From assembly GCA_905235565.1 (NCBI GenBank), contig CAJOLR010000005.1, positions 32,254 to 84,994 of the forward strand: a stretch of DNA of 52,741 nucleotides. The letters run 5' to 3'. Source of the DNA: an uncultured Bacteroidaceae bacterium. GTDB lineage: Bacteria > Bacteroidota > Bacteroidia > Bacteroidales > Bacteroidaceae. The notes under the pieces are model-generated. The model ran no database searches. It saw only the letters and a list, made by a program, of their open reading frames with translations, and was not told where the DNA came from. A program made the translations under genes and the position numbers. Positions 28,980 through 50,084 of the stretch are shown in pieces (within the stretch, counting starts at the first letter, position 1; every line of letters starts with the position of its first letter).

Positions 28980-30757
28980 AAAAGATATTATCATTATTGA
29001 TTGCTGCTATGGCATTGACTCAGTCCGTCAGAGCTGAATTTGTTACCCTCGAGCGTGCCGCACAGTCTGCCCGTGGATTCCTGGGTATGGCCGGCAATCC
29101 CGTGCGTGAGAACATTGCATCCCGCAGGACGGCTGGACGTAACGGTCAGGTCAATTCACCCGAATACTACGTCTTCAACAATCCTGACGGAGGTTGGATC
29201 ATCATTGCAGGAGATGACCGCGTCAATCCTGTGATAGGTTATTCCCTTGAGGGATCGTTCAGCAGTACCGATATGCCCGACAATCTCAAATGGTGGATGG
29301 ACGGTGTGGCCGAATATGTGGATATCATACGCACTTCGGATATCGTTGCCTCCGCTTCCGTAAAGGCTGCATGGGCACAGATTACCTCCGGTGTACCCGA
29401 ATCGGATAAGAAGGAGATAATTACCGCCAAATGGGATCAGACTGAACCGTTCAATAACCTGTGTCCCATTGTAACCGGTGATAACCAGCGTTCACTTACC
29501 GGTTGTGTGGCAACAGCCATGGCCATCATAATGCAGTATAACAAATGGCCGGTTCACGGAAAAGGTGTCATAGGCGGTTATACTTCCGGTTTAGGTACCT
29601 ATATTCCGGCATATTCCATAGATGAACACTATTATGACTGGGATCTGATGTCCGATGAGAATATGGTACGGGGTAAGACCTCAAATATGACATCCGATCA
29701 GATATACCAGGTGGCACGACTCATGTATGACTGTGGTGTCGCTACTGAGATGACATACAGTTATTCAGGATCCGGTACACACTCAGGGCTTGTTCCTGCA
29801 GTTCTCAAGAACAATATGTCATACTCACAATCTTTATCTTACATAACAAGGTCATCATATACTCTTGACAGTTGGTTCTCTATCTTGAAGAATGAGATTG
29901 ACAATGACCGCGTTGTCTTTTACAGTGGAGTAGACGAAAGCGGCGGACATGCATTTGTATGTGATGGGTATGATACGGGTGGCAGTATGCTTCATATCAA
30001 TTGGGGATGGGGTAATAATAATGCCAATGGCTATTATACACTGGATCTTATATTGCCCAACAGATATGGCGGTTTCCGTTTTTCGGACAAACAGGCTGCT
30101 GTCATCGGTATAGCTCCGGATACGGCCAGTGTCGTCCTGAATGCAAAATCTGCATTATCATGCATTGGTTATGATGGATTTTTCGGAATCGAGCCTATAA
30201 CGCCCACCGATATGAAATCAGGAGTCGAGGTTGAGTTCTTTATCGGATGGTTCTATAATGAAGTGGATCGTGACATGACACGTGAATTCAAGGTATGTCT
30301 TATGGACAAGGACGGAAATGTCAGACAGGAGGGTTGGCATTCGACTATAGAATTCCCGGCAAGTGACGGTTATTACTATGGGGATGAGACCGACAATGAT
30401 GTCCTTCTGGTGGATCCGGCATTGACGGATTACTTCAAGCTGTTCTATATGGATGATGACGGCGAGTGGATTCCGATGGCAGGAAACTATGATATCCTAC
30501 CTGATGTTGAAGGTATTGTCTGCGGCGTTACGCCGGATCCTGTCATTATCGTACCGGAAAACTGTGTTGCCGGAAAGAACAAGATGTCTCTGACATTAGG
30601 ATTCTCTCATGTCACATCCGTCAAATGGAGTGTCAACGGAACAGAATATGACGGAGATGAGGTTAACCTGGTTCCCGGTAGAAATGAGATACGGGCTGAT
30701 GTTGAATATTTCGATGGCTCAAGCGGCTATATCTCCCGTACTGTAATAATTGATTAA
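28976..30757 (+). CDS. Secreted C10-family cysteine protease (streptopain/interpain-like)
   Basis: 593 aa. Signal peptide (MKKILSLLIAAMALTQSVRA), inhibitory propeptide (about 21-150, with YYVFNNPDGGWIIIAGDDRVNPVIGYS), then the papain-like catalytic domain. The nucleophile is Cys177 in LTGCVATAMA, the catalytic His is His325 in GGHAFVCDGYD, and the Trp-rich HINWGWG follows. About 200 C-terminal residues form beta-rich accessory domains. Relatives are SpeB, interpain A of Prevotella and the Bfp proteases of Bacteroides. In Bacteroides, C10 genes often sit next to propeptide-like inhibitor genes; here the neighbour is a large lipoprotein instead. No sorting domain is visible at the C-terminus. 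The start is fixed by the ATGA overlap and signal peptide. Confidence 0.93.
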   Translation: MKKILSLLIAAMALTQSVRAEFVTLERAAQSARGFLGMAGNPVRENIASRRTAGRNGQVNSPEYYVFNNPDGGWIIIAGDDRVNPVIGYSLEGSFSSTDMPDNLKWWMDGVAEYVDIIRTSDIVASASVKAAWAQITSGVPESDKKEIITAKWDQTEPFNNLCPIVTGDNQRSLTGCVATAMAIIMQYNKWPVHGKGVIGGYTSGLGTYIPAYSIDEHYYDWDLMSDENMVRGKTSNMTSDQIYQVARLMYDCGVATEMTYSYSGSGTHSGLVPAVLKNNMSYSQSLSYITRSSYTLDSWFSILKNEIDNDRVVFYSGVDESGGHAFVCDGYDTGGSMLHINWGWGNNNANGYYTLDLILPNRYGGFRFSDKQAAVIGIAPDTASVVLNAKSALSCIGYDGFFGIEPITPTDMKSGVEVEFFIGWFYNEVDRDMTREFKVCLMDKDGNVRQEGWHSTIEFPASDGYYYGDETDNDVLLVDPALTDYFKLFYMDDDGEWIPMAGNYDILPDVEGIVCGVTPDPVIIVPENCVAGKNKMSLTLGFSHVTSVKWSVNGTEYDGDEVNLVPGRNEIRADVEYFDGSSGYISRTVIID

Positions 30758-30782
30758 ATTAACTAACTATCATTTATCGCTT

Positions 30783-33416
30783 ATGAAAAAGATTTCAGGT
30801 GTAATTGTCTTGGCTGCAGCAGCGCTGATGCTGTCATGCGGCGGTGGAAAGTACGAGTATCCTTTCCAGAACCCTAAGCTGAAGGTTGACAAGCGAGTAG
30901 ACAACCTTATGTCCCTGCTTACCCCCGAGGAGAAAGTGGGACTTATCATGAACAAGTCCATCTCTGTAGACCGTCTGGGTATCCCGTCCTACAACTGGTG
31001 GTCAGAGGCCTGCCACGGCGTGCGTCAGGGAGGTTACACAGTATTCCCGCAGCCTATCGGTATGGGCGCATCGTTCAACGAGCAGCTGGTTTATGACGTT
31101 TTCAGTGCAGTGTCCGATGAGGCCCGCGCCAACTGGAACCGCTCCAACCATGACATCTTCAATGTACAGATGGGTGCCAACTACGTACCCGGCAATCCCG
31201 AACTTACATTCTGGTGCCCCAACGTGAACATCTTCCGTGATCCCCGCTGGGGCCGCGGTCAGGAGGCTTACGGTGAGGATCCCTACCACATGAGCGTTCT
31301 GGGTGTAGCCAACGTAAAGGGTATGCAGGGCAATGACAAGAAGTACTACAAGACTCACGCTTGCGCCAAGCACTATGCAGTGCACAGCGGCCCTGAGAGC
31401 CAGCGTCACCGCTATGATGCAGTGGTTTCCATGCGTGACCTCTGGGAAACCTACCTGCCGGCATTCAAGGCACTTGTTGAGGAGGGTAACGTACAGGAGG
31501 TTATGTGCGCATACAACCGCTATGAGGGCGAGCCCTGCTGCGCAAGCGACCGCCTGCTCACCAACATCCTGCGTGAAAAGTGGGGTTACAAGGCAATCGT
31601 TCTGACAGACTGTGATGCCGTCAACAACTTCTTTAACCGTAACCAGCACGGTACTCACCCGGATGCAGAGACCGCATCTGTAGATGCCGTCCTGTCTGGT
31701 ACAGACCTGGAGTGCGGTAAGACATTCATGTCATTGGTCAAGGGTCTTGAGGACGGTAAGATCAATGAGGCCGATATCGACGTAGCTCTTCGCCGCGTGC
31801 TTAAGGGCCGTTTTGAACTGGGTATGTTCGATCCCGCCGAGATGCTGCCTTGGGCCAACTTCGGAGAGGACGTTATCAGCAGCGAGAAGAATGACCAGCT
31901 GGCAGTTGAGGCTGCACGTCAGGCTATGGTTCTGCTCAAGAACAACGGTGTACTGCCTTTGAGCAAGAACATAAAGAAACTGGCTGTAGTTGGTCCTAAC
32001 GCAGATGATAAGGGCATGATGAACGGTGAGTACGGCGGCAGCCCCACACAGGAGCATTCACGCTCTCTGCTGGATGGCATAAAGAAGTACTTCCCCAACA
32101 CAGAGATCGTTTATGACCGCGCCTGCGAGATCCGCAACGAGTATTATACAACTTATTACACCCAGGACATCAACGGTGGCAAGGGCCTCAAGGGTGAGTT
32201 CTGGAAGAACACCAACTTCAGCGGCGCTCCCGCTGTTACCGGTAATTATAAAGAGGCTAACTTCAGCAACTTCGGTGCCTACAACTTTGTTGAGGGCCTG
32301 GATCAGAGCGATAATATCTCAGCACGCCTGACCGGAAAGCTGGTTGCTCCTTACACCGGTGACATGAGTTACAACATCAGCTCTGACAACGGTTACAAGC
32401 TCTATGTAAACGGCCGTCTTGTTGAGGAGGCCAAGGGTAACCAGGGCGGTGGCCGTGGCGGTTTCGGCGGATTTGGTGGCCGTGGCGGTATGCAGCAGAT
32501 GAAGTCATTCAAGGTTACCAAGGGGCAGTCCTACGACATCAAGATTGAATATACCCACGCTACCGGTAATTTTGCCCGTCTGAACGCTCAGTTCTGCGTG
32601 CAGAAGATTGCCGAGTTCACCGACCTGGCTGACAAGCTGGTTGCCCAGAATGTTGAGGCAATAATTATTATAGGTGGTATCACTCCTTCTATGGAGGGTG
32701 AGGGTGGCGACAAGCCCGATATCGAGATTCCTGCAGTTCAGCAGCGCCTTATCCGTGCCATGCACGCTACCGGCAAGCCCGTCATTTTTGTTGACTGCGC
32801 AGGCTCTTGCATGGGATTCGGCTCACTCGAGGATCAGTTCGATGCCCTTATCCAGGCATGGTATCCCGGTCAGGGCGGTTCACAGGCTCTCGCCGAGATC
32901 CTGAACGGTGACTGCAACCCCAGCGCCAAGCTGCCCGTTACCTTCTACAAGAGCACCGATCAGCTTCCTGAGTTTACAGACTACTCAATGGAGGGCCGCA
33001 CATACCGTTACTTCAAGGGTGAGCCTCTCTATCCGTTCGGTTACGGTCTGAGCTACACCACTTACAAGTACGGTCAGGCTACCCTGTCAAAGGCTTCAAT
33101 GAAGAAGAACGGCAGTGTTACCATCACCATTCCGGTTACCAACACCGGCAAGCGTGAGGGTACCGAGATCGTTCAGGTATATGTCAAGAGCCTTGACAAC
33201 CCCACCGCTCCTATCAAGGGTCTGCAGGGATTCCAGCGCGTAACCCTTAAGGCAGGTGAGACCGGCAACGCCGTCATCACTCTGACCGGCAAGTCATTCC
33301 AGTACTACGACGAGAAGATTGACGAGGTTTCAACCTTCAGCGGTAAGTACAAACTCCTGTACGGCTCATCATCGGCCGATAAGGACCTGCAGTCACTTGA
33401 CTTCGAGGTGCTGTAA
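30783..33416 (+). CDS. GH3 lipoprotein beta-glycosidase with PA14 domain (copy 1)
   Basis: 877 aa. Lipobox LMLSC, no acidic surface-export signal after the Cys (GGGK follows). GH3 N-domain with the nucleophile in VLTDCDAV (Asp276). A PA14 domain (about 465-610) is inserted in the C-domain, and a fibronectin-III-like domain closes the chain (about 790-870). The PA14 insert holds a Gly/Arg/Phe loop (GGGRGGFGGFGGRGG, about 554-570). The family gives exo-acting beta-glucosidases, beta-xylosidases and alpha-arabinofuranosidases. The specificity is not certain, but the paralogue at 47.5 kb lies beside a GH43. Codons are strongly optimised. The start is the ATG with signal peptide, 25 bp after the protease stop. 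Confidence 0.94.
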   Translation: MKKISGVIVLAAAALMLSCGGGKYEYPFQNPKLKVDKRVDNLMSLLTPEEKVGLIMNKSISVDRLGIPSYNWWSEACHGVRQGGYTVFPQPIGMGASFNEQLVYDVFSAVSDEARANWNRSNHDIFNVQMGANYVPGNPELTFWCPNVNIFRDPRWGRGQEAYGEDPYHMSVLGVANVKGMQGNDKKYYKTHACAKHYAVHSGPESQRHRYDAVVSMRDLWETYLPAFKALVEEGNVQEVMCAYNRYEGEPCCASDRLLTNILREKWGYKAIVLTDCDAVNNFFNRNQHGTHPDAETASVDAVLSGTDLECGKTFMSLVKGLEDGKINEADIDVALRRVLKGRFELGMFDPAEMLPWANFGEDVISSEKNDQLAVEAARQAMVLLKNNGVLPLSKNIKKLAVVGPNADDKGMMNGEYGGSPTQEHSRSLLDGIKKYFPNTEIVYDRACEIRNEYYTTYYTQDINGGKGLKGEFWKNTNFSGAPAVTGNYKEANFSNFGAYNFVEGLDQSDNISARLTGKLVAPYTGDMSYNISSDNGYKLYVNGRLVEEAKGNQGGGRGGFGGFGGRGGMQQMKSFKVTKGQSYDIKIEYTHATGNFARLNAQFCVQKIAEFTDLADKLVAQNVEAIIIIGGITPSMEGEGGDKPDIEIPAVQQRLIRAMHATGKPVIFVDCAGSCMGFGSLEDQFDALIQAWYPGQGGSQALAEILNGDCNPSAKLPVTFYKSTDQLPEFTDYSMEGRTYRYFKGEPLYPFGYGLSYTTYKYGQATLSKASMKKNGSVTITIPVTNTGKREGTEIVQVYVKSLDNPTAPIKGLQGFQRVTLKAGETGNAVITLTGKSFQYYDEKIDEVSTFSGKYKLLYGSSSADKDLQSLDFEVL

Positions 33417-33544: not shown

Positions 33545-33916
33545 ATGAAAGCTTTGACCGAGAAAGAACAGATGGTAATGAGCGTGCTCTGGGAGCACAG
33601 GCATTGCGGTGTGGAGGATGTGATCAATCATCTTGATGAGCCCAAGCCGGCATACAATACCATTCTTACATTCCTTCGCATACTGGAGCAGAAGGGTTTC
33701 ATATCCTACGAGGCACAGGGCAAGAAGCACATCTACTATCCCCTTATAGAGAAAGGTGAGTACACCCGATGGACACTGACCGAGATGAAAGACAAACTCT
33801 TTAACGGGTCTGCCCGCTCTATGGTCAATACCTTTATTATGGAATCGGGTCTTAGTGACTCCGATGTACGCGAGCTTATTGAGATGTTGAACATGCTTGA
33901 AACCGCAAAGTCATGA
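33545..33916 (+). CDS. BlaI/MecI/CopY-family transcriptional repressor
   Basis: 123 aa. Winged helix-turn-helix in residues 1-70 (LTEKEQMVMSVLWEHRHCGVEDVINHL, then AYNTILTFLRILEQKGFI and the wing KKHIYYPL), followed by a dimerisation helix region. In the Bla system the repressor is cleaved after the membrane protease senses a signal. Its ATG overlaps nothing upstream, but its stop overlaps the M56 gene start (ATGA). The candidate operator lies immediately upstream. Confidence 0.93.
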   Translation: MKALTEKEQMVMSVLWEHRHCGVEDVINHLDEPKPAYNTILTFLRILEQKGFISYEAQGKKHIYYPLIEKGEYTRWTLTEMKDKLFNGSARSMVNTFIMESGLSDSDVRELIEMLNMLETAKS

Positions 33917-35217
33917 TTTACCTTATAGTATCCGCCGTATCGCTGGCCCTGATGGTGGCTGTTTACCGCCTCACTTTGAGCCGGACCACATTCCACGGTT
34001 TCAACCGTTTTGTGCTGCTGGCAACACTGGCGCTTGCTGCCGTCATTCCGCTAATGCATTTCCAGAGCATCAGCAGCAGGGCATCGGCACCAATATCATA
34101 TATGCTGGGTGAGATTATGGTTTATGCCGATGGTACATCGGGCGTAAAAAACGTGCAGGCAACGGAGTCAGGCAGCGTAAGTATATTATCGGTAATTACG
34201 GTTGTCTATCTGGCAGGATTGATATTCTGTCTCTTAAGGATTGCAATTGGCATCCTGAGTTCAGAGATTATCTGCCATCGCCGTTCCAGAACGCTGGCCG
34301 ACGGAACCCGCCTGGTTATAACCGAGCGTAACTACGCCCCGTTCAGCTGGCGTAACTGCATAGTGATTTCGCGTAAGGATTATGAGTCCAACGGTGCCAT
34401 GATTATAGCCCATGAGCAGGCGCACGTGCACCATCACCACTCGTTTGATCTAATTCTGGCCCAGCTGTTCTGTGCCGTGCAGTGGTTCAATCCCGCGGCC
34501 TGGATACTGCGCCGCAGCCTGCTGGAGGTCCATGAGTTTGAGGCCGATGCATCGGTCCTTGAGAATGGCTTTGACGGCCACCGTTATCAGATTTGTCTTG
34601 TCCGTGCTGCACTGCAGGGCAGTTTTGCGACAACTACAAATAATTTCTCAAATTGTTCAACCAAAAAAAGAATTGTTATGATGAACAGACATTCAACAAA
34701 TCCTTGGGCACGCCTGAGAGTGTTGCTCATGTTGCCGGCAGTGGCATTGTCAGTTATAGTTGCATCGGCCTGCAAACAGGATACAAACAGTGAGATGAAT
34801 TTGAAGACGCAGGATGCATCCCCTAGCAGTGTTTATTGGGATATTGAAGAATGTGAAGAATGTGAAACTGAGGAGGCCGATACATCCCAGGTGTTTATGA
34901 TAGTGGAGGAAGGACCGGAGTACCCGGGTGGTTCCGCAGCTCTGCTGGAATACCTGAGAAGTAATATACAATACCCTGAGAGATGTAAGGAAAACAAGAT
35001 TCAGGGCCGTGTGTTAATTACTTTTGTGGTCAATAAGGACGGTAGTATAGTTGAGCCGGCGGTCGTAAAGAGTGCAGGTCCCGAAGGCGTTGAACTTGAT
35101 GTTGAGGCATTAAGGGTGGTTAGTTCTATGCCAGCCTGGACTCCCGGAAAGCAGAAAGGTGAGGCTGTACGCGTCAGATTCACCGTTCCGGTTAACTTCC
35201 GTCTATCAGAAGATTAA
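33913..35217 (+). CDS. M56 (BlaR1-like) membrane metalloprotease with TonB C-terminal domain
   Basis: 434 aa. Three N-terminal TMs (about 3-20, 35-52, 92-112), then a zinc protease core with HEQAH (His167-His171) and EFEAD as third-ligand motif. A fourth TM is near 275-295 (LLMLPAVALSVIVA). The periplasmic tail has an acidic linker (EECEECETEEADTS) and a TonB-C domain (about 335-434: GGSAALLEYLRSNIQYPERC, GRVLITFVVNKDGSI). BlaR1 proper carries a penicillin-binding domain there. This form is common in Bacteroidetes and its signal is unknown. It presumably inactivates the BlaI partner. The stop codon overlaps the stop of the convergent EFR1 gene by 4 bp. Confidence 0.92.
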   Translation: MIYLIVSAVSLALMVAVYRLTLSRTTFHGFNRFVLLATLALAAVIPLMHFQSISSRASAPISYMLGEIMVYADGTSGVKNVQATESGSVSILSVITVVYLAGLIFCLLRIAIGILSSEIICHRRSRTLADGTRLVITERNYAPFSWRNCIVISRKDYESNGAMIIAHEQAHVHHHHSFDLILAQLFCAVQWFNPAAWILRRSLLEVHEFEADASVLENGFDGHRYQICLVRAALQGSFATTTNNFSNCSTKKRIVMMNRHSTNPWARLRVLLMLPAVALSVIVASACKQDTNSEMNLKTQDASPSSVYWDIEECEECETEEADTSQVFMIVEEGPEYPGGSAALLEYLRSNIQYPERCKENKIQGRVLITFVVNKDGSIVEPAVVKSAGPEGVELDVEALRVVSSMPAWTPGKQKGEAVRVRFTVPVNFRLSED

Positions 35218-35969
35218 AAGTGATACTGACCTTTGCCCCGGGTGGCGGTGCCAAAGTTGATGGCGTTCCTGGGGCATCGGTGGTAGCAGCTCATGCAATT
35301 GGTGCAATGACCGTTCCATTTGGGGCGGTCATTCTCTATTGTTATGTTCTGCAGGGGGCATTTTTTGGCGCAGATGCCGCAGCCTATGCAGGTGTCCGAT
35401 ACACGGAACTTGCGGTCGGTTATGAGCAGACCGTAGAAGAGGGGCTTGAGAATGTTTGATTTGAGGAATGTCTTGCTGCCGCGCAAACGGTCATAATTGC
35501 CTTTTGTGCGCTGCCGGATAAGGCCGATGACATCACTCAGGTTGGCTTTTGTACTGTCAATCTTGCGCTTGGCGTTCTCCGGGGTGTCCAGACTGAAACC
35601 GGGCAGGTTGATGTAGGTCTCGGGCATCCGGAATGAGAAGAATGCGTCCAACTGCAATCCCTGTTTGCTGAGGTCCTTGCAGAGATGCTCATACGTAAGA
35701 CCTGTCTGGTCTCCGCATGTGCAGGCTGCGAATATATAGGATGGTTTGCCTTTGATGCTGACCGTGCGCAGAAACTCCGATACCAGCTTGGGTACAGACC
35801 ATGAATAGACGGGAAAGACTATCCCCAGTATCTCATCGGGGCCGAATTCCAAAGCCGCTGCCTGTCGGGCGGCCTCGGGGATGAATATCATGTTGTCATC
35901 ACCGAGTTCTTTTGAAAGGGTTTCGGCCACAAAGCGGCTGTTGCCGCATCCGGAGTACCAGAGTATCAT
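35214..35969 (-). CDS. EFR1-type flavodoxin/2x[4Fe-4S] ferredoxin
   Basis: 251 aa. N-terminal flavodoxin-like domain (LWYSGCGNSRFVAETLSKEL, residues 3-22; GIVFPVYSWSVP). The C-terminal bacterial ferredoxin domain has two complete clusters: Cys194, 197, 200, 204 and Cys222, 225, 228, 232. EFR1-family proteins are electron carriers with unknown partners. Its ATG overlaps the stop of the QueH-cyclo-ligase gene by 4 bp. It could supply electrons to QueH, which needs reduction equivalents to remove the epoxide oxygen; this is inference from position only. Confidence 0.9.
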   Translation of the reverse strand: MILWYSGCGNSRFVAETLSKELGDDNMIFIPEAARQAAALEFGPDEILGIVFPVYSWSVPKLVSEFLRTVSIKGKPSYIFAACTCGDQTGLTYEHLCKDLSKQGLQLDAFFSFRMPETYINLPGFSLDTPENAKRKIDSTKANLSDVIGLIRQRTKGNYDRLRGSKTFLKSNILKPLFYGLLITDRKFRVSDTCIGCGICAKKCPLQNITIENDRPKWNGHCTNCMSCYHRCPRNAINFGTATRGKGQYHF

Positions 35970-37033
35970 ATCACAAAATCCATTTTAATGTCATTGTCAT
36001 CGGTGGGCACGCAGGGCAGTTTCTGGCAGTCAAAGCAGACTCCGGCCTTAAGTGCGTGTGGCAGCCGGGGCAGCAGACGGTCGTAGAATCCGCGGCCGCG
36101 TCCCATACGGTTTCCGGCGGTATCAAACGCGCGGCCCGGAACCAGCACCAGCGTGATGGGGCTCAGGTCTGTCACCGGCTTGCCGTCAGGCTCGGGTATT
36201 CCGAACTGCTCACCCGGGTGGAGCTTTCCGTCATACAACTTTACAATAAGGTCATCGCCCTGTATGGATGGCAGGTAGAAACGTTTGCCTAAGGCTGACC
36301 ATTTATCTATGAATGCAGGGGTCTGTACCTCATCATCCATTGACCAGTATGCCAGTATATCGGTTGCATCCTTAAACGCCTGATTCTGCTCCAGACGTTC
36401 CCAGATAGAGGCGGACTGCGCAGCTTTCTGCTCCGGAGTCATTACTGAAATGAGCCGGTGGATGCGCTGGCGGGCCTGTTTCTTGTCATCATGCATGGCC
36501 TGCATGCTATACTCGCAGCCGCAGTAGCGCTGGTTGTAGAAATCCTGTTCCTTAATAATCTGTGAGCGGCGTTCCTGCAGGCCTCCCTGGCGCCAGTTCT
36601 TATCCCAAAACGTAAGTCCCGGGAACTGGGCGGCAGCCCAATTGCCGGCCTCCACAATCTGGTCGTGGCGTTTCCATCGGCTTGAATCAAGGGTGGAGGT
36701 GAAGATGCTGAATCCGTGTTCAGATGCATATCTGGCGGCACTCAATAGGCGCATCTTAAAGCACTCCAGACAGCGCTTGCCGCGCTCGGGCTCATCTTCC
36801 AGTCCTTTTACGCAGCACTGCCATGCGGAGTGGTTATAGTCAGCATCAACTATCTCCAGCCCCAGTCCGGTTGCATAACGGTTGCACTCCTCCTTTCGGA
36901 TCAGATACTCCTCCAGAGGGTAGATGTTGGGGTTGCAATAGTAGATGGTAGGCTGCCAGCCGTTGCTTAGCATCCACTCAATGATGGCTCCGCTGCACGG
37001 CGCACAGCACGTATGTAGCAGGATGCGGTTCAT
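35966..37033 (-). CDS. Fusion of epoxyqueuosine reductase QueH and 5-formyltetrahydrofolate cyclo-ligase
   Basis: 355 aa, two enzymes in one chain. Residues 1-180 are QueH (DUF208), the non-cobalamin enzyme of the last step of queuosine tRNA modification. Cluster/metal cysteines are LLHTCCAPC (Cys9, 10, 13), RCLEC (Cys88, 91) and YCGC (Cys171, 173). Residues 183-355 are 5-formyl-THF cyclo-ligase, which makes 5,10-methenyl-THF with ATP: KKQARQRI at its start and VPGRAFDTAGNRMGRGRGFYDRLL near the end. The ATG at 37033 overlaps the Fur-family stop (ATGA), and its stop overlaps the EFR1 start. I see no linker break or stop between the domains. Confidence 0.92.
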   Translation of the reverse strand: MNRILLHTCCAPCSGAIIEWMLSNGWQPTIYYCNPNIYPLEEYLIRKEECNRYATGLGLEIVDADYNHSAWQCCVKGLEDEPERGKRCLECFKMRLLSAARYASEHGFSIFTSTLDSSRWKRHDQIVEAGNWAAAQFPGLTFWDKNWRQGGLQERRSQIIKEQDFYNQRYCGCEYSMQAMHDDKKQARQRIHRLISVMTPEQKAAQSASIWERLEQNQAFKDATDILAYWSMDDEVQTPAFIDKWSALGKRFYLPSIQGDDLIVKLYDGKLHPGEQFGIPEPDGKPVTDLSPITLVLVPGRAFDTAGNRMGRGRGFYDRLLPRLPHALKAGVCFDCQKLPCVPTDDNDIKMDFVI

Positions 37034-37473
37034 TGATGGTGGTGATGGGTATGGATAGTGTGGCCTTTGCGGATACATTCAGGGCAGATTCCCTTTGCCA
37101 TGTAGTTGATGCTCTCCACCTGGAAACCGTCAGGGTAATCCACCTGGGGTATGGGCAGCTCTTCAAGACAGAATGTGCGGTGGCACACTTCACAGTGAAA
37201 ATGCACGTGACGGTCATCATCAATCCCGCCATGGGCATGGCACAACTCGTATCGCACACCCTCGCAGCCGTCATCGATCTGATGCAGCAGATGGTTCTCC
37301 TTGAAAAGCATCAGAGTACGGAATATGCCCGACTTATCGATGGAGTCAATCTGATTCTCCAATTCTGACATAGTGACGGGGTGGTCTAACTCCGCTAATG
37401 CCTTTAGCACCAGCAACCGGTTTGCCGTCGGCTTCACTCCATGCTCAGATAATATTTTTTCAAGTTCTTCCAT
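37030..37473 (-). CDS. Fur-family metal-responsive repressor (Fur/Zur-like)
   Basis: 147 aa. Winged-helix DNA-binding half (residues 5-75: GVKPTANRLLVLKAL, SELENQIDSIDKSGIFRTLMLF), dimerisation half with HVHFHCEVC and two structural zinc CxxC pairs (Cys94/97, Cys130/133), and a His-rich tail (HTIHTHHHH). The tail and the CobW-type metallochaperone upstream favour a zinc sensor (Zur). Iron is also possible given the Fe-S protein genes downstream. First gene of the Fur-QueH/FCL-EFR1 run with ATGA overlaps. No clear -7 box was found between it and the inverted repeat upstream. Confidence 0.9.
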   Translation of the reverse strand: MEELEKILSEHGVKPTANRLLVLKALAELDHPVTMSELENQIDSIDKSGIFRTLMLFKENHLLHQIDDGCEGVRYELCHAHGGIDDDRHVHFHCEVCHRTFCLEELPIPQVDYPDGFQVESINYMAKGICPECIRKGHTIHTHHHHQ

Positions 37474-37488
37474 TTGTAGATATCTCGC

Positions 37489-37660
37489 AATAGGGACGAT
37501 TTCATCCGTGATTTTTGGTGGGTGTGGGTATAGGAAACCAAGGCTGCCCGTGGGCTTGTGAACGGGAGGGGCCCGCCGCGCAGCGGTGGGAGGGATAGCG
37601 CGTATCGCGTAGTTTCAGATACCTATACCCCAAAAAATCACGGGTGAAACCGTTCCTATT
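37489..37660. repeat. MITE-like inverted repeat between cobW-type gene and fur-type gene
   Basis: Arms at 37489-37534 and 37622-37660 are inverted copies. The outer 28 bases differ at only three positions (start AATAGG, core CCGTGATTTTT), and after a 7-base length difference both arms end in GGGTATAGG. The 87-bp centre is GC-rich and holds CCCGCCGC/GCGGTGGG and CGCG/CGCG hairpins. The right arm begins inside the TAG stop of the GTPase gene. No obvious target duplication or transposase. Confidence 0.7.
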
Positions 37661-38930
37661 CCACTAAGCATTTGTCAAGCTCCTGTTTGATGTAGGCTTT
37701 ATCCAGGTTCTGGCCGATGAATACCAGTTTCTGCATACGGTCTCCATAAGTTTCATCCCAATCTGCAGCCAGAGTGGGGTCTGAGCGTAGCATATTAGCC
37801 AGCTGGTTCTCCGGCATGGTGGCGTACCACTGACCTGCATTCTTGAGGCTCATCTGCTTGCCGGCCTGCTCAAACAGGTAGCATATGTCAAACTCATCGG
37901 TAAAGTAACACATTCCCTTGGTGCGGATAACGCCCTTGGGCCAGCGTTTGGATACGAACCAGTCAAAACGGTTCAGGTCCATGGGACGGCGTGCATAATA
38001 TACATAGGTGCCGATGCCGTATTCCTCGACCTCACCGCCTTCATGGTCATGGTGATGATGATGGTGATGCCCGTGGTCATGATGGTGGTGCTCATGCTCA
38101 TCATGCTCATCATGGTCGTCGTCATCGTCGTCGTGGTGATGGTGGTGCTCGTGTTCATCGTCATCGTCGTCGTCATCATCCTGATGTTCCAGTTCGTCAC
38201 CGCGTTTTTCGATCTCATGAATCCAAGTGGCACTGGTGGCGACCTTCTCAAAATCAAAGGCTCCGGTATTGAGTATGTTATCCAGCTCAATTTCTCCGTA
38301 ATCACACTCCAGAATACGGGCACGCGGCTGCAGGGCGCGAACCACCTTGCGGATGCGCTCCATCTCGGCGCCACTGACCTCCGAAGCTTTGTTAAGGAGT
38401 ATGATGTTGCAGAACTCTATCTGCTGGATGACCAGGTTCTCCAGGTCCTCCTCGCCAATGTTTTTCTTTACCAGGTCATCTCCGCATCCAAACTCGTCAC
38501 GGATGCGCAGGGCATCTACCACGGTTACGATGCAGTCTAACTGTGGTATTCCGTCCTTGGTATATTTCTCCTCCATGCGCGGGATGGATTCAATGGTTTG
38601 GGCTATGGGGCCGGGCTCACAGATACCGCTGGCTTCAATAACGATGTAGTCAAAACGGTGCAGTGCAATGATCTGATGCAGTTGCTCTACAAGATCCATC
38701 TTGAGCGTGCAGCATATGCATCCGTTCTGAAGTGCAACCAGGCTGTCATCCTTCAAGCCTACAACACCTCCCTGCTGGATAAGGTTGGCATCGATGTTGA
38801 CTTCGCCTATATCGTTTACTATGACTGCAAACTTTATTCCTTTGCTGTTGCTGAGAATCCTGTTAACCAGTGTGGTTTTTCCGCTGCCTAAATAACCGGT
38901 AAGCAGCAGGACCGGAGTTTTGTTTGTCAT
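37656..38930 (-). CDS. CobW/COG0523-family metallochaperone GTPase
   Basis: 424 aa. Walker A GYLGSGKTT (residues 12-20), metal-binding CxCC motif (Cys71, 73, 74 in GCICCTL), the ESIPRME-linked switch region and the G-type LNKASEV motif. A very acidic His/Asp loop (about 247-298) separates the GTPase and CobW_C domains and should bind zinc or other metals. The family delivers metals to target enzymes; several members are Zur-controlled. It is followed by the inverted repeat and the Fur-type gene, and preceded by an outer-membrane protein gene 21 bp upstream. Confidence 0.93.
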   Translation of the reverse strand: MTNKTPVLLLTGYLGSGKTTLVNRILSNSKGIKFAVIVNDIGEVNIDANLIQQGGVVGLKDDSLVALQNGCICCTLKMDLVEQLHQIIALHRFDYIVIEASGICEPGPIAQTIESIPRMEEKYTKDGIPQLDCIVTVVDALRIRDEFGCGDDLVKKNIGEEDLENLVIQQIEFCNIILLNKASEVSGAEMERIRKVVRALQPRARILECDYGEIELDNILNTGAFDFEKVATSATWIHEIEKRGDELEHQDDDDDDDDEHEHHHHHDDDDDDHDEHDEHEHHHHDHGHHHHHHHDHEGGEVEEYGIGTYVYYARRPMDLNRFDWFVSKRWPKGVIRTKGMCYFTDEFDICYLFEQAGKQMSLKNAGQWYATMPENQLANMLRSDPTLAADWDETYGDRMQKLVFIGQNLDKAYIKQELDKCLVE

Positions 38931-40248: not shown

Positions 40249-41667
40249 TTATTTGTTCCTGACTTTCTTCTGTATGAGATCATAACTCAACGAGATACCG
40301 GCACCGGTAGGACCTAACCATCGGAAAATCATGTTACGCCTGATGAATAGTCTGGGTTCATCAAACCATGAGTAGTAATACTTTCCGGCAAATGGCGAAC
40401 CTGCATCATATGGGTCATAGAATGTTATGTATACACCTCCTTTTACAAGGAATTCCAGTTTCCATCTGGTGTCGGGATTCTTACCCAACGGTTTTACGTA
40501 ACCGTAGCCAAGTCCGCCTCCGAATCCTTCGCCCTGATAACCATGGCCGGCCTGTCGGTCAAAACATATGTCAAACAGGTTGGATCCTATGTATGCGGAC
40601 AGGTAATGGCCGGTGTGGTTGGAGTTTTTCTTGAAGTATCTGCGGCCTTCTATCTGCAGGTTCAGGATCTGGAAGTACTGGTGCTTGGATGGTACCGTAT
40701 GCCATGGGAACTCGTACTCTGCAAGCAAGGTCCAGCGTCCATGTTCGGTGGGATACAGTTCGGCCTCCACATTATATATTGGAGCCCAACCCAGATCCTT
40801 CATTGCGAACCCATAGTATGGGAGATTGGTCTTTACTGCCAGGAGCGGACGTTTCCTGAATGTCTCCGGCTCCAGTAACGTCTGGCTTTCGGGCTGTTTG
40901 CGGATAGTGTCATCCAGATTTGGCGATGTCTCTTCAACCAGCGGGATCCCGATGTCCATATCAAGTACATTGACAGGCTCTACCGTATGCAGGATATAAA
41001 TACCTGAATTACGTATTACCGGGAAATAGTATTTGGACAGATATGCATACACGTCGCCCGTCTTGGGGTTCTTTCCCAGAGAGTTTTTCAGCTTGCTCTT
41101 CTTGGATGCTATGCTGATTTCTTGGGAATCGATGATGTTAAGTATCTTGTCTATGGTGGCTTCCTCCAGGTTGGGGTCTTGGGCAACGTATTGGGCCAGA
41201 TTCTCCCAGGATTCAGTGACAGTGTTCAGGGATATCTTGTCTTTGAGGTCGGGGAAGACGCGGTACATATAGTACAGCATTACCTCTGAACGGTTCTTTG
41301 TGAGCCATTGGTTACGCTCAAGGGTACCTTCGGGCGACGATTGTGAGATTATTTCAATGGCGGCGATGTTTTCCCTGCCCAAGGAGTCTATGACCCTGTC
41401 CAGATGTAGCAGCGACAATCCGTTGTCCATGTAGGAGATGTCAAGTTTGGGATTGTTAAGCCTGAAGTGGATTTCGGTGTAGTCGGTTGCCACGTAAGCG
41501 CTGTCGGACACCGGCTTGGGAAGGATGCGTTTGACGACTGTGTCTCCAACTTGCAGCAGATTATCTGACTGGGAATGGCTTTGGGCCGAAGAAGGAACGG
41601 TCAGGAGAGCACAGAATGCCACCATCACGAATGAACGTATGAATTCAAAAACAATCCTTTTTCCCAT
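40249..41667 (-). CDS. DUF3575 protein with OmpA-like N-terminal part
   Basis: 472 aa. Signal peptide ending in VPSSAQ. Residues about 60-230 contain an OmpA-like pattern (LHLDRVIDSLGRENIAAIEIISQSSPEGT, then LTKNRSEVMLYYM), as in proteins that touch peptidoglycan. Residues about 275-465 are the DUF3575 barrel (LAVKTNLPYYGF, WTLLAEYEFPWH, GYGYVKPLG). DUF3575 genes are often found in Bacteroides fimbrial loci. No fimbrial genes are adjacent here. First gene of the unit with the Omp85-like protein; a TATCTTTG box lies 30 bp upstream. Confidence 0.85.
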   Translation of the reverse strand: MGKRIVFEFIRSFVMVAFCALLTVPSSAQSHSQSDNLLQVGDTVVKRILPKPVSDSAYVATDYTEIHFRLNNPKLDISYMDNGLSLLHLDRVIDSLGRENIAAIEIISQSSPEGTLERNQWLTKNRSEVMLYYMYRVFPDLKDKISLNTVTESWENLAQYVAQDPNLEEATIDKILNIIDSQEISIASKKSKLKNSLGKNPKTGDVYAYLSKYYFPVIRNSGIYILHTVEPVNVLDMDIGIPLVEETSPNLDDTIRKQPESQTLLEPETFRKRPLLAVKTNLPYYGFAMKDLGWAPIYNVEAELYPTEHGRWTLLAEYEFPWHTVPSKHQYFQILNLQIEGRRYFKKNSNHTGHYLSAYIGSNLFDICFDRQAGHGYQGEGFGGGLGYGYVKPLGKNPDTRWKLEFLVKGGVYITFYDPYDAGSPFAGKYYYSWFDEPRLFIRRNMIFRWLGPTGAGISLSYDLIQKKVRNK

Positions 41668-47453: not shown

Positions 47454-50084
47454 ATGAAAAAATCTTATTTGCTTTCATGCCTTTTGACAGCTGTAATGCT
47501 GCTACCCGGTTGCAAGGACAACAGTTACGAGTATCCGTTCCAGAATCCCAACCTTAAGGTTGACAAGAGAGTGGACAACCTGCTTTCACTCCTTACTCCA
47601 CAGGAGAAGATAGGTTTGATGATGAACGGCTCCATATCCATTGACCGTTTTGACATTCCAGCCTACAACTGGTGGAATGAGGCCTGCCACGGAATATGCT
47701 ATGATGATGTCACCGTATTCCCGCAGGTGATTGCCTTAGGTGCCACATTCGATGCCCCCCAGCAGCTGGAGATCTATACCGCCGTGTCCGATGAGGCCCG
47801 CGCTGTATGGAACACCACCAACCATCATCAGATGGGCGTTAACCAGACCAACAGCAGCATCTGGCATCAGGGACTCTCATTCTGGTGCCCCAACGTGAAC
47901 ATATTCCGTGACCCCCGCTGGGGCCGCGGTCAGGAGACTCCGGGCGAGGATCCTTATCTGAACGCCGTCATGGGTACCCAGACCGTTAAGGGTATGCAGG
48001 GCAATGACAAGAAATACCTTAAGCTGCACTCTTGCGCCAAGCACTATGCGGTTCACAGCGGACCGGAACCCCTGCGCCACCAGTTCAACGTGAGCGTATC
48101 AGGGCGTGACCTGTGGGAGACCTACCTGCCGGCATTCAAGAGCCTGGTTCAGGACGGAAACGTACAGGAAGTTATGTGCGCATATCACCGTTATGAGGAT
48201 GAGCCCTGCTGCGCCAGCGACCGTCTGCTTCAGGACATCCTGCGTAACAAGTGGGGATTCAAGGGGCTGGTAGTGACAGACTGCGGCGCCATAGGTGACT
48301 TCTTCAACACCCGCCAGCACGGCACTCACAAGGATGCCGCCAGCGCATCGGCCGATGCAATCCTTTCCGGTGCCGACATTGAGTGCGGAACCAGCTACCG
48401 TGCACTCAGCCAGGCTATGGAGCAGGGTCTCATTACCGAGGCTGATATCGATGTTAACGTTCGCCGTATCCTCAAGGCACGCTTTGAGCTGGGTATGTTT
48501 GATCCTGCCGAGAACCTGCCTTGGGCAAACCTGGGTCTGGATGACCTGAGCAGCCCCGCCCATACAGCTCTTGCCAGCAAGGCCGCCCATGAGGCAATCG
48601 TCCTGCTCAAGAACCAGAACAATATCCTGCCGCTGAGCAAGGACAAAAAGATTGCCGTGGTAGGTCCCAATGCCGATGATGCCCGCGTTATCCTGGGTAA
48701 CTACAACGGTTATCCCACAGCAGCCAATGCCAAGACCATCCTGGACGGAATCCGCGAGGCTGTTCCCGGTTCCGGGATCATTTATGAGAAGGGTTGTGAC
48801 CTGAACTCCGCTTCAATAACCACACACTATGTAGGTCAGATAAACGGCGGCAAGGGTCTGCATGCAGAGTATTACAATACCCTTGACTGGACAGGCAATG
48901 TCGTTGCCCGCGTTGACTATGACGAGCCTCTGAGCCTCAACACCACATCTCCAGCCCTGGCACGTGAGGACTGCCCCTGGGCCGAGGGTGTCAACATGAC
49001 CGGTTTCTCAGCCAAGTATACCGGCAGCTTCACTGCCGACTATACAGGTGATATGGTTTACAATGTCCGCGGAAGCTCACGCTACACATTCAAGATTAAC
49101 GGCAAGACCATTGCCGAGAATGCAGGTCAGGGCGGTGGCCGTGGCGGATTCGGAGGCTTTGGCGGATTCGGCCGTGGCGGTGCTCCTGCAACCACATTCA
49201 AGGTTGAGAAGGGCAAGACATACGATATCTCAATCGAGCTCAGCCAGCCCGAGGCCCGTTCGGCTTCATTCTCATTCGATATCTACAGCCGCGGTCCGGT
49301 TGACTTCAAGAAGGTTGTCGAGAAGGTTTCACAGGCTGATGTGATTGTAATGGTTAGCGGTATCTCATCGGACATAGAGGGTGAGGGACATGACCGTTCA
49401 TCAATTGAGCTCCCCGAGGTTCAGCAGCAGCTGCTCTCTGAGCTTGACGCTACCGGCAAGCCCATTGTTCTGGTGAACGTATCAGGCAGTGCCATAGGAT
49501 TCGGCAATGTTGAGAGCAAGTACGATGCCCTTATCCAGGCCTGGTACGGCGGTCAGGCTACCGGTCAGGCTGTAGCCGATGTGCTGTTCGGTGACTACAA
49601 TCCCGCAGGCCGTCTGCCGGTTACATTCTATACATCAACAGACCAGCTGCCCGATTTCCAGGACTACTCAATGAACAACCGTACCTACCGTTACTTCAAT
49701 GGCCAGCCCCTGTATGCTTTCGGTTACGGACTCAGCTACACCACATTCAGCTATGGTGACGCCAAGACATCGGGCAAGGCACAGAAGATGACTCTGACCG
49801 TTCCCGTTACCAATACCGGTAAGAAAGACGGCGATGAGGTAATCCAGGTCTATGTAAAGGCTCTTGACAATGCCGACGCTCCCATCAAGTCACTGGCCGG
49901 ATTCGCCCGCGTGAACATCGCTGCCGGTCAGACTCAGAACGTGACCGTTGAACTTAACAAGGACGCATTCAGCTTCTACGATGAGGCTACCGACGGTCTT
50001 AAGTTCAAGCCCGGCCGCTACCAGATAATGTATGGCGGTTCATCGCTTGACAAGGACCTTAAGAGTATAGAGGTAAAGCTTTGA
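47454..50084 (+). CDS. GH3 lipoprotein beta-glycosidase with PA14 domain (copy 2)
   Basis: 876 aa, close paralogue of the 30.8-kb GH3 gene, collinear over the full length. Lipobox LLPGC followed by KDN. The nucleophile is in VVTDCGAI (Asp276, the same position as in copy 1). The PA14 domain again has a Gly/Arg/Phe loop (about 559-575), and a fibronectin-III-like end follows. Differences cluster in the substrate loops (for example HGICYDD versus HGVRQGG), suggesting split specificity. It is preceded by GH43 at 30 bp, which points to debranching and hydrolysis of arabinoxylan- or arabinan-derived oligosaccharides. A terminator follows. Confidence 0.94.
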   Translation: MKKSYLLSCLLTAVMLLPGCKDNSYEYPFQNPNLKVDKRVDNLLSLLTPQEKIGLMMNGSISIDRFDIPAYNWWNEACHGICYDDVTVFPQVIALGATFDAPQQLEIYTAVSDEARAVWNTTNHHQMGVNQTNSSIWHQGLSFWCPNVNIFRDPRWGRGQETPGEDPYLNAVMGTQTVKGMQGNDKKYLKLHSCAKHYAVHSGPEPLRHQFNVSVSGRDLWETYLPAFKSLVQDGNVQEVMCAYHRYEDEPCCASDRLLQDILRNKWGFKGLVVTDCGAIGDFFNTRQHGTHKDAASASADAILSGADIECGTSYRALSQAMEQGLITEADIDVNVRRILKARFELGMFDPAENLPWANLGLDDLSSPAHTALASKAAHEAIVLLKNQNNILPLSKDKKIAVVGPNADDARVILGNYNGYPTAANAKTILDGIREAVPGSGIIYEKGCDLNSASITTHYVGQINGGKGLHAEYYNTLDWTGNVVARVDYDEPLSLNTTSPALAREDCPWAEGVNMTGFSAKYTGSFTADYTGDMVYNVRGSSRYTFKINGKTIAENAGQGGGRGGFGGFGGFGRGGAPATTFKVEKGKTYDISIELSQPEARSASFSFDIYSRGPVDFKKVVEKVSQADVIVMVSGISSDIEGEGHDRSSIELPEVQQQLLSELDATGKPIVLVNVSGSAIGFGNVESKYDALIQAWYGGQATGQAVADVLFGDYNPAGRLPVTFYTSTDQLPDFQDYSMNNRTYRYFNGQPLYAFGYGLSYTTFSYGDAKTSGKAQKMTLTVPVTNTGKKDGDEVIQVYVKALDNADAPIKSLAGFARVNIAAGQTQNVTVELNKDAFSFYDEATDGLKFKPGRYQIMYGGSSLDKDLKSIEVKL

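What the first reader, a model, noticed from the sequence alone, without database searches (positions are those of the whole stretch)
35966..37473. QueH fused to 5-formyl-THF cyclo-ligase, locked into an operon with a Fur-type repressor and an EFR1 ferredoxin
Seen: one uninterrupted 355-aa frame carries all QueH cysteines and all cyclo-ligase motifs, and the three genes overlap by ATGA at both junctions. Known: QueH reduces epoxyqueuosine without cobalamin; the cyclo-ligase returns 5-formyl-THF to the folate pool. Inference: a metal-sensing repressor controls a tRNA-modification/folate enzyme and a dedicated electron donor. With the CobW-type chaperone upstream, this looks like a zinc- or iron-limitation response that spares metal-dependent steps (GTP cyclohydrolase-linked folate and queuosine synthesis).
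Basis: partly seen in the sequence, partly recalled or inferred. Interest (0 to 1): 0.7.

Follow-up and report, generated by a model that had tools for sequence, protein, structure and literature searches.

The report
QueH–cyclo-ligase fusion beside zinc-export regulator
A group of uncultured gut Bacteroidales, some from ruminant stomachs, has welded the last enzyme of a tRNA modification (queuosine) to a folate-recycling enzyme, in a gene cluster with a regulator that looks tied to pumping zinc out rather than to coping with too little zinc.

Summary
One 355-aa frame (37033..35966, minus) holds complete QueH and 5-formyl-THF cyclo-ligase (FCL) domains; a Fur-family gene precedes and an EFR1 gene follows, both by ATGA overlap. 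It is no artefact: 25 of 37 genus genomes carry it in one frame, 23 at full length, and it has one origin. No other full-length match was listed in 393 genomes of the order. It is the only QueH and FCL hit in its genomes; QueG passes its cut-off only in two genomes that lack QueH.

The 'metal limitation' reading is not supported. The Fur protein belongs to a subfamily found beside metal exporters. Its likely operator, TGCAAC-N3-GTTGCA, ends exactly 12 bp before the -7 box of a zinc-ATPase gene in 22 of 22 genes examined, own genome included, and in 63 of 93 order-wide hits: probably an activator of zinc efflux. No operator was found at the window's operon, and five species have the fusion without Fur. 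EFR1 as electron donor is plausible, untested. QueH is fused to unrelated enzymes elsewhere, so the FCL pairing may mean little.

The parts
35966..37033 (-). QueH-FCL fusion gene, 355 aa
   Evidence: 25 of 37 genus genomes (23 full length); alignment A1 of 19
36500..37033 (-). QueH domain (residues 1-178), epoxyqueuosine reductase
   Evidence: PF02677 200 bits; PDB 9dco, 7lc5, 9d86 with E up to 1.4e-21
35969..36484 (-). 5-formyl-THF cyclo-ligase domain (residues 184-355)
   Evidence: PF01812 121 bits, TIGR02727 over cut-off; PDB 1sou
37030..37473 (-). Fur-family regulator of the export-linked subfamily, 147 aa
   Evidence: PF01475 34 bits, cut-off 23.1; ligands against E. coli Zur; neighbours and tree
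35214..35969 (-). EFR1-family protein with two 4Fe-4S sites, 251 aa (flavodoxin-like N-terminal part: recalled for the family)
   Evidence: NF038196 250.6 bits, Fer4 models
37656..38930 (-). CobW/COG0523-type GTPase with long His/Asp stretch
   Evidence: PF02492, PF07683; ZigA model 342 bits, under its cut-off of 600
37489..37660 (.). dispersed palindromic repeat between CobW and Fur (arms 37489-37521 and 37628-37660)
   Evidence: 22 matches in the own genome
38952..40283 (-). Omp85-family outer-membrane protein, 21 bp before CobW
   Evidence: PF01103, NF047779 over cut-off; neighbour in relatives
40249..41667 (-). DUF3575 protein, possible first gene of the run
   Evidence: PF12099; neighbour in relatives

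Best explanation
A bifunctional protein that arose once in this genus by joining a Bacteroidales QueH to an FCL. SHOWN by sequence: intact domains, one QueH origin, purifying selection, no second QueH or FCL hit in the genomes that carry it, no QueG over cut-off there. INFERRED: the QueH part reduces epoxyqueuosine to queuosine in tRNA with its Fe-S centre; the FCL part turns 5-formyl-THF into 5,10-methenyl-THF; the join secures joint expression rather than channelling a shared substrate. EFR1 most likely hands electrons to the Fe-S centre (inferred from linkage in 24 of 26 genomes only). The Fur-family gene in front encodes a zinc-sensing regulator of an export-linked subfamily; it most likely binds TGCAAC-N3-GTTGCA and, judging by the fixed 12-bp spacing to the -7 box, activates zinc exporters when zinc is high. 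The fusion therefore sits in the operon of a zinc-excess regulator, not of a zinc-starvation response. In the window species the operon is probably read from a promoter further upstream without an operator of its own; in two relatives a perfect operator lies between a zinc-exporter-type (CDF) gene and Fur-fusion.
For: Domains. Conservation in genus. QueH tree: 23 fused rows one clade, 100/99. dN/dS median 0.092 (QueH) and 0.103 (FCL) over 45 pairs of 10 genomes. QueG over cut-off only in G001 and G028 of 37, both without QueH; QueA 37 of 37; Tgt over cut-off 34 of 37. EFR1 next to the fusion 24 of 26, also in the divergent G035 and G003. Regulator: three of the four sensing ligands recalled for E. 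coli Zur (H77, C88, H96) aligned with H64, C78, H91, and the four structural Cys kept (site roles recalled). Exporter-type genes beside 23 of 29 homologues. ZntA-like ATPase in 22 of 37 genomes, box within 2 mismatches upstream of 23 of 23 of its genes, 12 bp to TAnnTTTG in 22 of 22 examined (G019 left out, its box lies 282 bp away). Order-wide: 93 hits against 1 in the reversed control; 63 at spacing 12, 11 at 13.
Against: No operator at the window's operon: best intergenic site scores 1.6 bits against a training minimum of 22.6. No Fur hit beside the fusion in G024, G034, G017, G019, G035. ATPase and box also occur in G002 and G010, where no Fur relative was found (83% and 80% complete, fusion missing too). 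The own genome (91% complete) and G007 (97%) gave no Tgt hit, so a complete Q pathway is not shown there. Two weak QueG hits below cut-off exist, one in the fusion genome G003. A COG0523 GTPase and, in some relatives, a TonB receptor lie beside Fur; both often go with metal shortage. A canonical Fur protein represses when metal-loaded; activation is inferred from spacing alone, and binding of this protein to this palindrome from co-location alone. No experiment.
Confidence: 0.6

Rival explanations
1. One reading: a zinc- or iron-starvation regulator (classical Zur or Fur) represses the operon; on starvation the cell makes QueH-FCL, EFR1 and the CobW chaperone to spare metal-dependent folate and queuosine steps.
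For: COG0523 GTPase upstream in 17 of 29 fusion genomes; Zur-like ligands; TonB receptor gene divergent from Fur in L086; queD2 and COG0523 genes are described as Zur-regulated in other bacteria (PMC9508795 passages; PMC2770081 passage).
Against: The tree puts this Fur with the exporter-linked proteins, apart from four homologues of which three stand by TonB or CobW hits (split 99/93); boxes lie at an exporter in the same species; no operator at the window's operon.
Confidence: 0.12
2. The regulator is a repressor of the exporters whose DNA binding is relieved by metal (apo-repressor), not an activator; the fixed spacing reflects overlap with the polymerase site.
For: The palindrome covers the region where the -33 element should lie; some Zur proteins are said to bind better without zinc (PMC8000910 passage).
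Against: An almost invariant 12 bp over many families is tighter than a repressor needs; neither half-site TTG lies 19-21 bp from the -7 box at the exporters (gaps 25 and 15; promoter consensus recalled).
Confidence: 0.25
3. The fusion and its neighbourhood have no functional logic: Bacteroidales QueH fuses by read-through to whatever gene lies next to it, and the Fur-fusion-EFR1 order is a local accident kept by descent in one genus.
For: QueH is also fused to a biotin/lipoate-ligase-type domain (L031, L034), a cytidylyltransferase-like domain (L035) and an RpiB-type domain (L136); 0 of 71 unfused QueH loci have FCL, EFR1 or CobW within the fetched flanks; every whole-genome fusion found comes from one genus, and the 9 named fusion loci have titles that fit it.
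Against: The 4-base EFR1 overlap is kept in 21 of 24 pairs while fusion sequences diverged to 47-55% identity; both domains under purifying selection.
Confidence: 0.3
4. The QueH part has lost its role and acts on another substrate, the protein being essentially an FCL with a metal-binding appendage.
For: No Tgt hit in the own genome or in G007; Asp13 of the solved QueH is Cys here.
Against: Tgt over cut-off in 34 of 37 and QueA in 37 of 37 genomes; QueG over cut-off only where QueH is missing; the cysteines of CC, RC..C and YCGC are invariant in the 19 fusions aligned.
Confidence: 0.05

Closest known systems
QueH epoxyqueuosine reductase (PF02677; PDB 7lc5)
   Same: full-length domain, cysteine motifs, present where QueG is not
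   Different: C-terminally fused to FCL; CCAPC in place of CCAPD; next to an EFR1 gene
5-formyltetrahydrofolate cyclo-ligase (MTHFS, TIGR02727; PDB 1sou, 3hxt)
   Same: full-length domain with the PGRAFD and GRGRGFYDR stretches
   Different: normally a free-standing enzyme; here the C-terminal half of a fusion and the only copy hit
Zur (E. coli Zur, PDB 4mtd; Streptomyces Zur as activator of zitB, PMC11077047; P. aeruginosa Zur activating czcR, PMC9827704)
   Same: Fur fold, zinc-type ligands, palindromic operator; those Zurs also drive zinc export
   Different: a separate Bacteroidales subfamily beside exporters, with a fixed operator-promoter spacing; another clade with TonB/CobW neighbours exists
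EFR1 family ferredoxin (NF038196)
   Same: full-length match over cut-off
   Different: link to QueH not seen outside this genus in the loci
COG0523/CobW metallochaperone GTPases (ZigA-like)
   Same: nucleotide-binding and C-terminal domains, His-rich insert
   Different: below the ZigA cut-off; stands by an export-type regulator

Membership tests
QueH | full-length PF02677 over gathering score | tested here: met
   residues 4-178, 200 bits
QueH | conserved cysteines of the Fe-S/metal site | tested here: met
   which residues bind metal is recalled; Asp13 replaced by Cys
QueH | takes the place of QueG next to Tgt and QueA | tested here: met
   over 37 genus genomes; but Tgt not found in the own assembly
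QueH | reduces epoxyqueuosine | not testable with these tools
   needs enzyme assay
5-formyl-THF cyclo-ligase | full-length model over cut-off | tested here: met
5-formyl-THF cyclo-ligase | ATP-dependent conversion of 5-formyl-THF | not testable with these tools
   needs enzyme assay
Zur (zinc uptake regulator) | structural Cys4 and sensing ligands | tested here: met
   C94 C97 C130 C133; H64 C78 H91; the E. coli E111 is not kept, an invariant C102 lies nearby (site roles recalled)
Zur (zinc uptake regulator) | operators and neighbours at zinc uptake genes | tested here: not met
   exporters instead; a TonB receptor of unknown substrate beside Fur in L086
Zur acting as activator of zinc export | operator at exporter promoters at a constant place | tested here: met
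Zur acting as activator of zinc export | zinc-dependent activation | not testable with these tools
   needs expression data
EFR1 ferredoxin | NF038196 over cut-off, two 4Fe-4S sites | tested here: met
ZigA metallochaperone | NF038288 over cut-off | tested here: not met
   342 against 600 bits

The most novel reading that the evidence does not exclude
Bacteroidales possess a second, export-type Zur that activates zinc exporters from a rigidly placed operator, and in this genus its operon carries the only queuosine-finishing enzyme, welded to a folate-recycling enzyme and given its own electron donor, so that zinc excess sets tRNA modification and one-carbon recycling together.
Probability: 0.15. 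Interest if true: 0.75.

Novelty: new variant of a known kind. Interest (0 to 1): 0.5.

Why it matters
The electron donor of QueH is, to my knowledge (recalled), unsettled; an overlapping EFR1 gene gives a concrete candidate to test. The fusion makes a testable link between queuosine and one-carbon folate. The side result may matter more: a palindrome at one fixed distance from exporter promoters across many Bacteroidales families predicts how these gut and rumen bacteria sense zinc excess, with a Fur-family protein rather than ZntR or CzrA types.

Tried and rejected
Assembly artefact: rejected, genomes of different projects share the frame. Pseudogene or relic domain: rejected by dN/dS. QueH beside an unfused FCL: 0 of 71. 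The box searched in the window: the closest match, at 47499 (2 mismatches, 19.3 bits), is the signal-peptide/lipobox start of a GH3 gene; one at 36871 (3 mismatches) lies inside the QueH frame; both set aside. Many genus hits of the type TTGCAAAAACGTTGCAA look like ends of insertion elements (several near contig ends) and were not counted as operators; I did not prove that. The CobW-Fur spacer as a special control element: not supported, it is a dispersed repeat. Structure prediction of the fusion from 19 close sequences was mediocre (pLDDT 70.0, pTM 0.48) and was not used. In the FCL tree the label needs two changes: G003, itself a fusion, was left unlabelled, and one long standalone row (L258) joins G003 and G035; I read this as one origin, with that reservation. 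For the QueH tree I gave 24 of the 71 named unfused loci and all 29 of L021-L049. In one search two of 54 given loci (E. coli Zur and the own genome's other Fur) gave no row. Loci L240-L244 and L247-L249 were fetched and not examined. Paper searches: QueH with cyclo-ligase (0 papers); Zur, Bacteroides, zinc, COG0523 (0); Fur family, zinc, Bacteroidetes, P-type ATPase, regulon (2); Fur family, zinc efflux, Bacteroidetes, czcA, palindrome (1); Zur with B. thetaiotaomicron (10); EFR1 with ferredoxin and flavodoxin (1). By title none reports this fusion or this regulator; apart from the papers cited with their calls I saw listings only, and the library holds open-licence papers only.
Full report
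WHAT IS THERE. The minus-strand frame 37033..35966 encodes 355 aa with QueH (PF02677, residues 4-178, 200 bits) and 5-formyl-THF cyclo-ligase (PF01812, residues 184-355, 121 bits; TIGR02727 over cut-off). Both halves find solved relatives: QueH chains (7lc5, 9dco, 9d86) and MTHFS chains (1sou and others). Fur (37473..37030) ends in the ATGA that starts the fusion, and the fusion ends in the ATGA that starts EFR1 (35969..35214). Upstream on the same strand lie CobW (38930..37656), an Omp85-family gene and a DUF3575 gene; downstream a BlaI/BlaR-like pair converges on EFR1.

THE FUSION IS REAL AND LOCAL. Of 37 genomes of the genus, 23 match the fusion full length in one frame and 2 nearly so (G006 with the last 57 residues in another frame, G012 with residues 1-310 matched); 2 more show both domains in one frame cut by a contig end (G029, G003); 1 has broken frames (G023); 1 ends inside QueH (G004); 3 have QueH unfused (G025 and G030 with FCL on another contig, G032 QueH only); 2 have FCL only (G001, G028); 3 have neither (G002, G010, G014). 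In 393 genomes of the order, the only full-length match listed was the own genome (weak end of the list cut). Among those 71, none has an FCL, EFR1 or CobW hit in the fetched flanks (up to 10 kb, less where contigs end); one has a Fur hit 7 kb away. In the QueH tree the 23 fused rows are one clade (100/99); the FCL tree is compatible apart from one long standalone row. dN/dS medians are 0.092 and 0.103 (45 pairs of 10 genomes each).

WHAT THE QueH HALF DOES. QueG is over its cut-off in 2 of 37 genus genomes, G001 and G028; two more weak hits, in G030 and the fusion genome G003, are far below it. G001 and G028 are among the 5 without QueH. QueA is over cut-off in 37 of 37, Tgt in 34 of 37. The own genome and G007 gave no Tgt hit, G010 a partial one; I take this as assembly loss but cannot show it. 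So in most of these genomes the fusion is the only enzyme hit for the last step to queuosine. Two of two QueG genomes falling among five without QueH is a small sample (chance about 0.015 by my own count).

FUSION PARTNERS VARY. Four other QueH proteins with long frames were scanned: two carry a C-terminal biotin/lipoate-ligase-type domain, one an N-terminal cytidylyltransferase-like domain, one a C-terminal RpiB-type domain. QueH in Bacteroidales therefore joins readily to unrelated enzymes. This weakens any argument from the FCL partner to a shared pathway.

EFR1. It stands next to the fusion in 24 of 26 genomes where this could be judged (no hit in G017 and G019; contig ends in G012, G029, G004), with the 4-base overlap in 21 of 24. 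It is present in the divergent G035 and G003, in G035 without Fur. It is thus the steadier partner, and its two 4Fe-4S sites fit a reductant for an Fe-S reductase. That is inference; no EFR1 hit was seen beside unfused QueH (29 loci with 1.5 kb flanks; 71 loci).

THE FUR GENE. It precedes the fusion in 23 of 28 assessable genomes; there is no hit in G024 (where a stretch that by eye resembles its C-terminus is left before QueH), G034, G017, G019 and G035. In G019 and G003 the closest relative lies elsewhere in the genome. Aligned with E. coli Zur it keeps the four structural cysteines and H64, C78, H91 at the places of H77, C88, H96; the place of E111 is not kept, while C102 is invariant (roles of the E. 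coli residues recalled). The own genome has only one other Fur-family hit, beside what by eye is purA.

IT BELONGS TO AN EXPORT-LINKED SUBFAMILY. Among 29 homologue loci of the order with up to 1.5 kb flanks, 15 have a ZntA-like P-type ATPase, 1 a CDF transporter, 5 an RND pump, 1 an outer-membrane efflux protein and 1 an adaptor protein; in 6 I saw none of these (ATPase and CDF by phmmer; the RND pumps of L076 and L077 confirmed with Pfam, the other three by likeness to these; of the 6, the largest or another large neighbouring frame was scanned, one each). A palindrome recurs there and also in the fusion-bearing species. The ATPase (TIGR01512 523 bits, cut-off 313.5; CPC motif) was found in 22 of 37 genus genomes, the own one included. 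Upstream of 23 of 23 of its genes lies a site within 2 mismatches of TTGCAAC-N3-GTTGCAA. In the 22 genes examined for spacing (G019 left out because its site is 282 bp away), the core ends exactly 12 bp before TAnnTTTG. The CDF side in G031 and G029 shows the same 12 bp; the Fur side there has 8 bp to a weaker TATCTTCG, with a half-site TTG at 21 bp, the usual -33 distance (my reading of the sequences; promoter consensus recalled). Against a simple picture: G002 and G010 have ATPase and box but gave no Fur hit; both are incomplete and lack the fusion hit too. G015 and G031 have the Fur but no such ATPase hit.

ORDER-WIDE TEST. The pattern TGCAAC-N3-GTTGCA-N{4,24}-TAnnTTTG gave 93 hits in 69 of 393 genomes against 1 for the reversed control. 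Spacing 12 accounts for 63, spacing 13 for 11, the other 19 allowed spacings together for 19 (the 93 are not independent, since related genomes share sites). Of the 30 loci fetched, 8 have a hit to the P-type ATPase, 10 to the RND pump and 1 to the CDF transporter in the 1.5 kb flanks. Four others (L284, L287, L292, L294; spacing 16-17, centres ATT, AAT, ATT, ATA) stand by a more distant Fur (52-56 bits), three of them with a TonB (25-26 bits, weak) or CobW hit. A tree of 52 Fur proteins parts these four from the 48 others, all fusion-side ones included, at 99/93 (L284 is a long branch). I read this as two zinc regulators with like half-sites, one perhaps for uptake, one for export; the uptake side rests on four loci. 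The fixed spacing and the lack of a -33 element at the right distance point to activation at the exporters. Known parallels: Streptomyces Zur activates zitB (PMC11077047, passages), P. aeruginosa Zur activates czcR (PMC9827704, abstract), Xanthomonas Zur activates metal efflux (PMC8000910, passages).

IS THE FUSION CONTROLLED BY IT? In G031 and G029 a perfect site lies between the CDF gene and Fur-fusion. In the window no intergenic site of the operon exceeds 1.6 bits, against a minimum of 22.6 in the training set of 26 sites, which all have the exact core; no site within 3 mismatches lies between genes of the operon. So here the fusion most likely shares a message with the regulator without being its target. 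The spacer between CobW and Fur is a dispersed palindromic repeat, with 22 matches in the own genome and matches in 21 of the 24 genus genomes examined, none in the 14 others; in G016, G026 and G033 CobW and Fur run into each other without it.

WHY METAL AND QUEUOSINE MIGHT STILL MEET. E. coli without Q is more resistant to nickel and cobalt and more sensitive to cadmium, and QueH is listed as iron-dependent (PMC9508795, passages). COG0523 proteins take part in zinc and cobalt flow beyond plain starvation (PMC11340326, abstract). An Fe-S enzyme exposed to zinc or cadmium excess would be at risk, which would give a reason to travel with an export regulator. This is conjecture.

VERDICT. Observation confirmed; interpretation partly supported, with the direction of the metal response most likely the other way round. 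New variant of known kinds: a QueH fusion and an export-linked Zur relative, neither of which I found described within the searches named in Tried and rejected.

Noticed in passing
window 37489-37660; 22 matches in the own genome: A palindromic repeat of 120-180 bp, with matches in 21 of 24 genus genomes examined and none in 14 other genomes of the order, sits between CobW and Fur here and at the same place in G009, G013 and G022.
   Followed up: partly
own genome G000:C2:40102-40136 (locus L273), also L229: A His-rich ZntA-like ATPase gene with the palindrome 12 bp before its -7 box: the likely real target of the window's Fur protein.
   Followed up: yes
L031, L034, L035, L136: Other QueH fusions in Bacteroidales: with biotin/lipoate-ligase-type, cytidylyltransferase-like and RpiB-type domains.
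   Followed up: partly
L284, L287, L292, L294: A second Fur clade, three of the four beside a TonB or CobW hit, with TGCAAC-ATT/AAT/ATA-GTTGCA sites at spacing 16-17, apart from the export-linked clade.
   Followed up: partly
genomes G001 and G028: Same genus, yet QueG in place of QueH, with a standalone FCL: exchange of one epoxyqueuosine reductase for the other within a genus.
   Followed up: partly
genomes G025, G030, G032 (loci L180, L175, L179): Unfused QueH on a very long branch away from the other Bacteroidales QueH of the tree, found in the same genus.
   Followed up: no
window 30750..33416 and 47454..50084: Two genes whose proteins begin very much alike, about 14 kb apart; the second is a glycoside hydrolase family 3 protein, the first was not scanned.
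   Followed up: no
window 33545..35217: BlaI/BlaR-like pair whose second protein ends in a TonB C-terminal domain; it overlaps the 3' end of the EFR1 gene by 4 bases on the other strand and recurs beside the cluster in several relatives.
   Followed up: no
TTGCAAAAACGTTGCAA-type hits, for example G011:C21:38589: A recurrent imperfect palindrome in the genus, several copies near contig ends, that looks like the end of an insertion element and mimics the operator.
   Followed up: no
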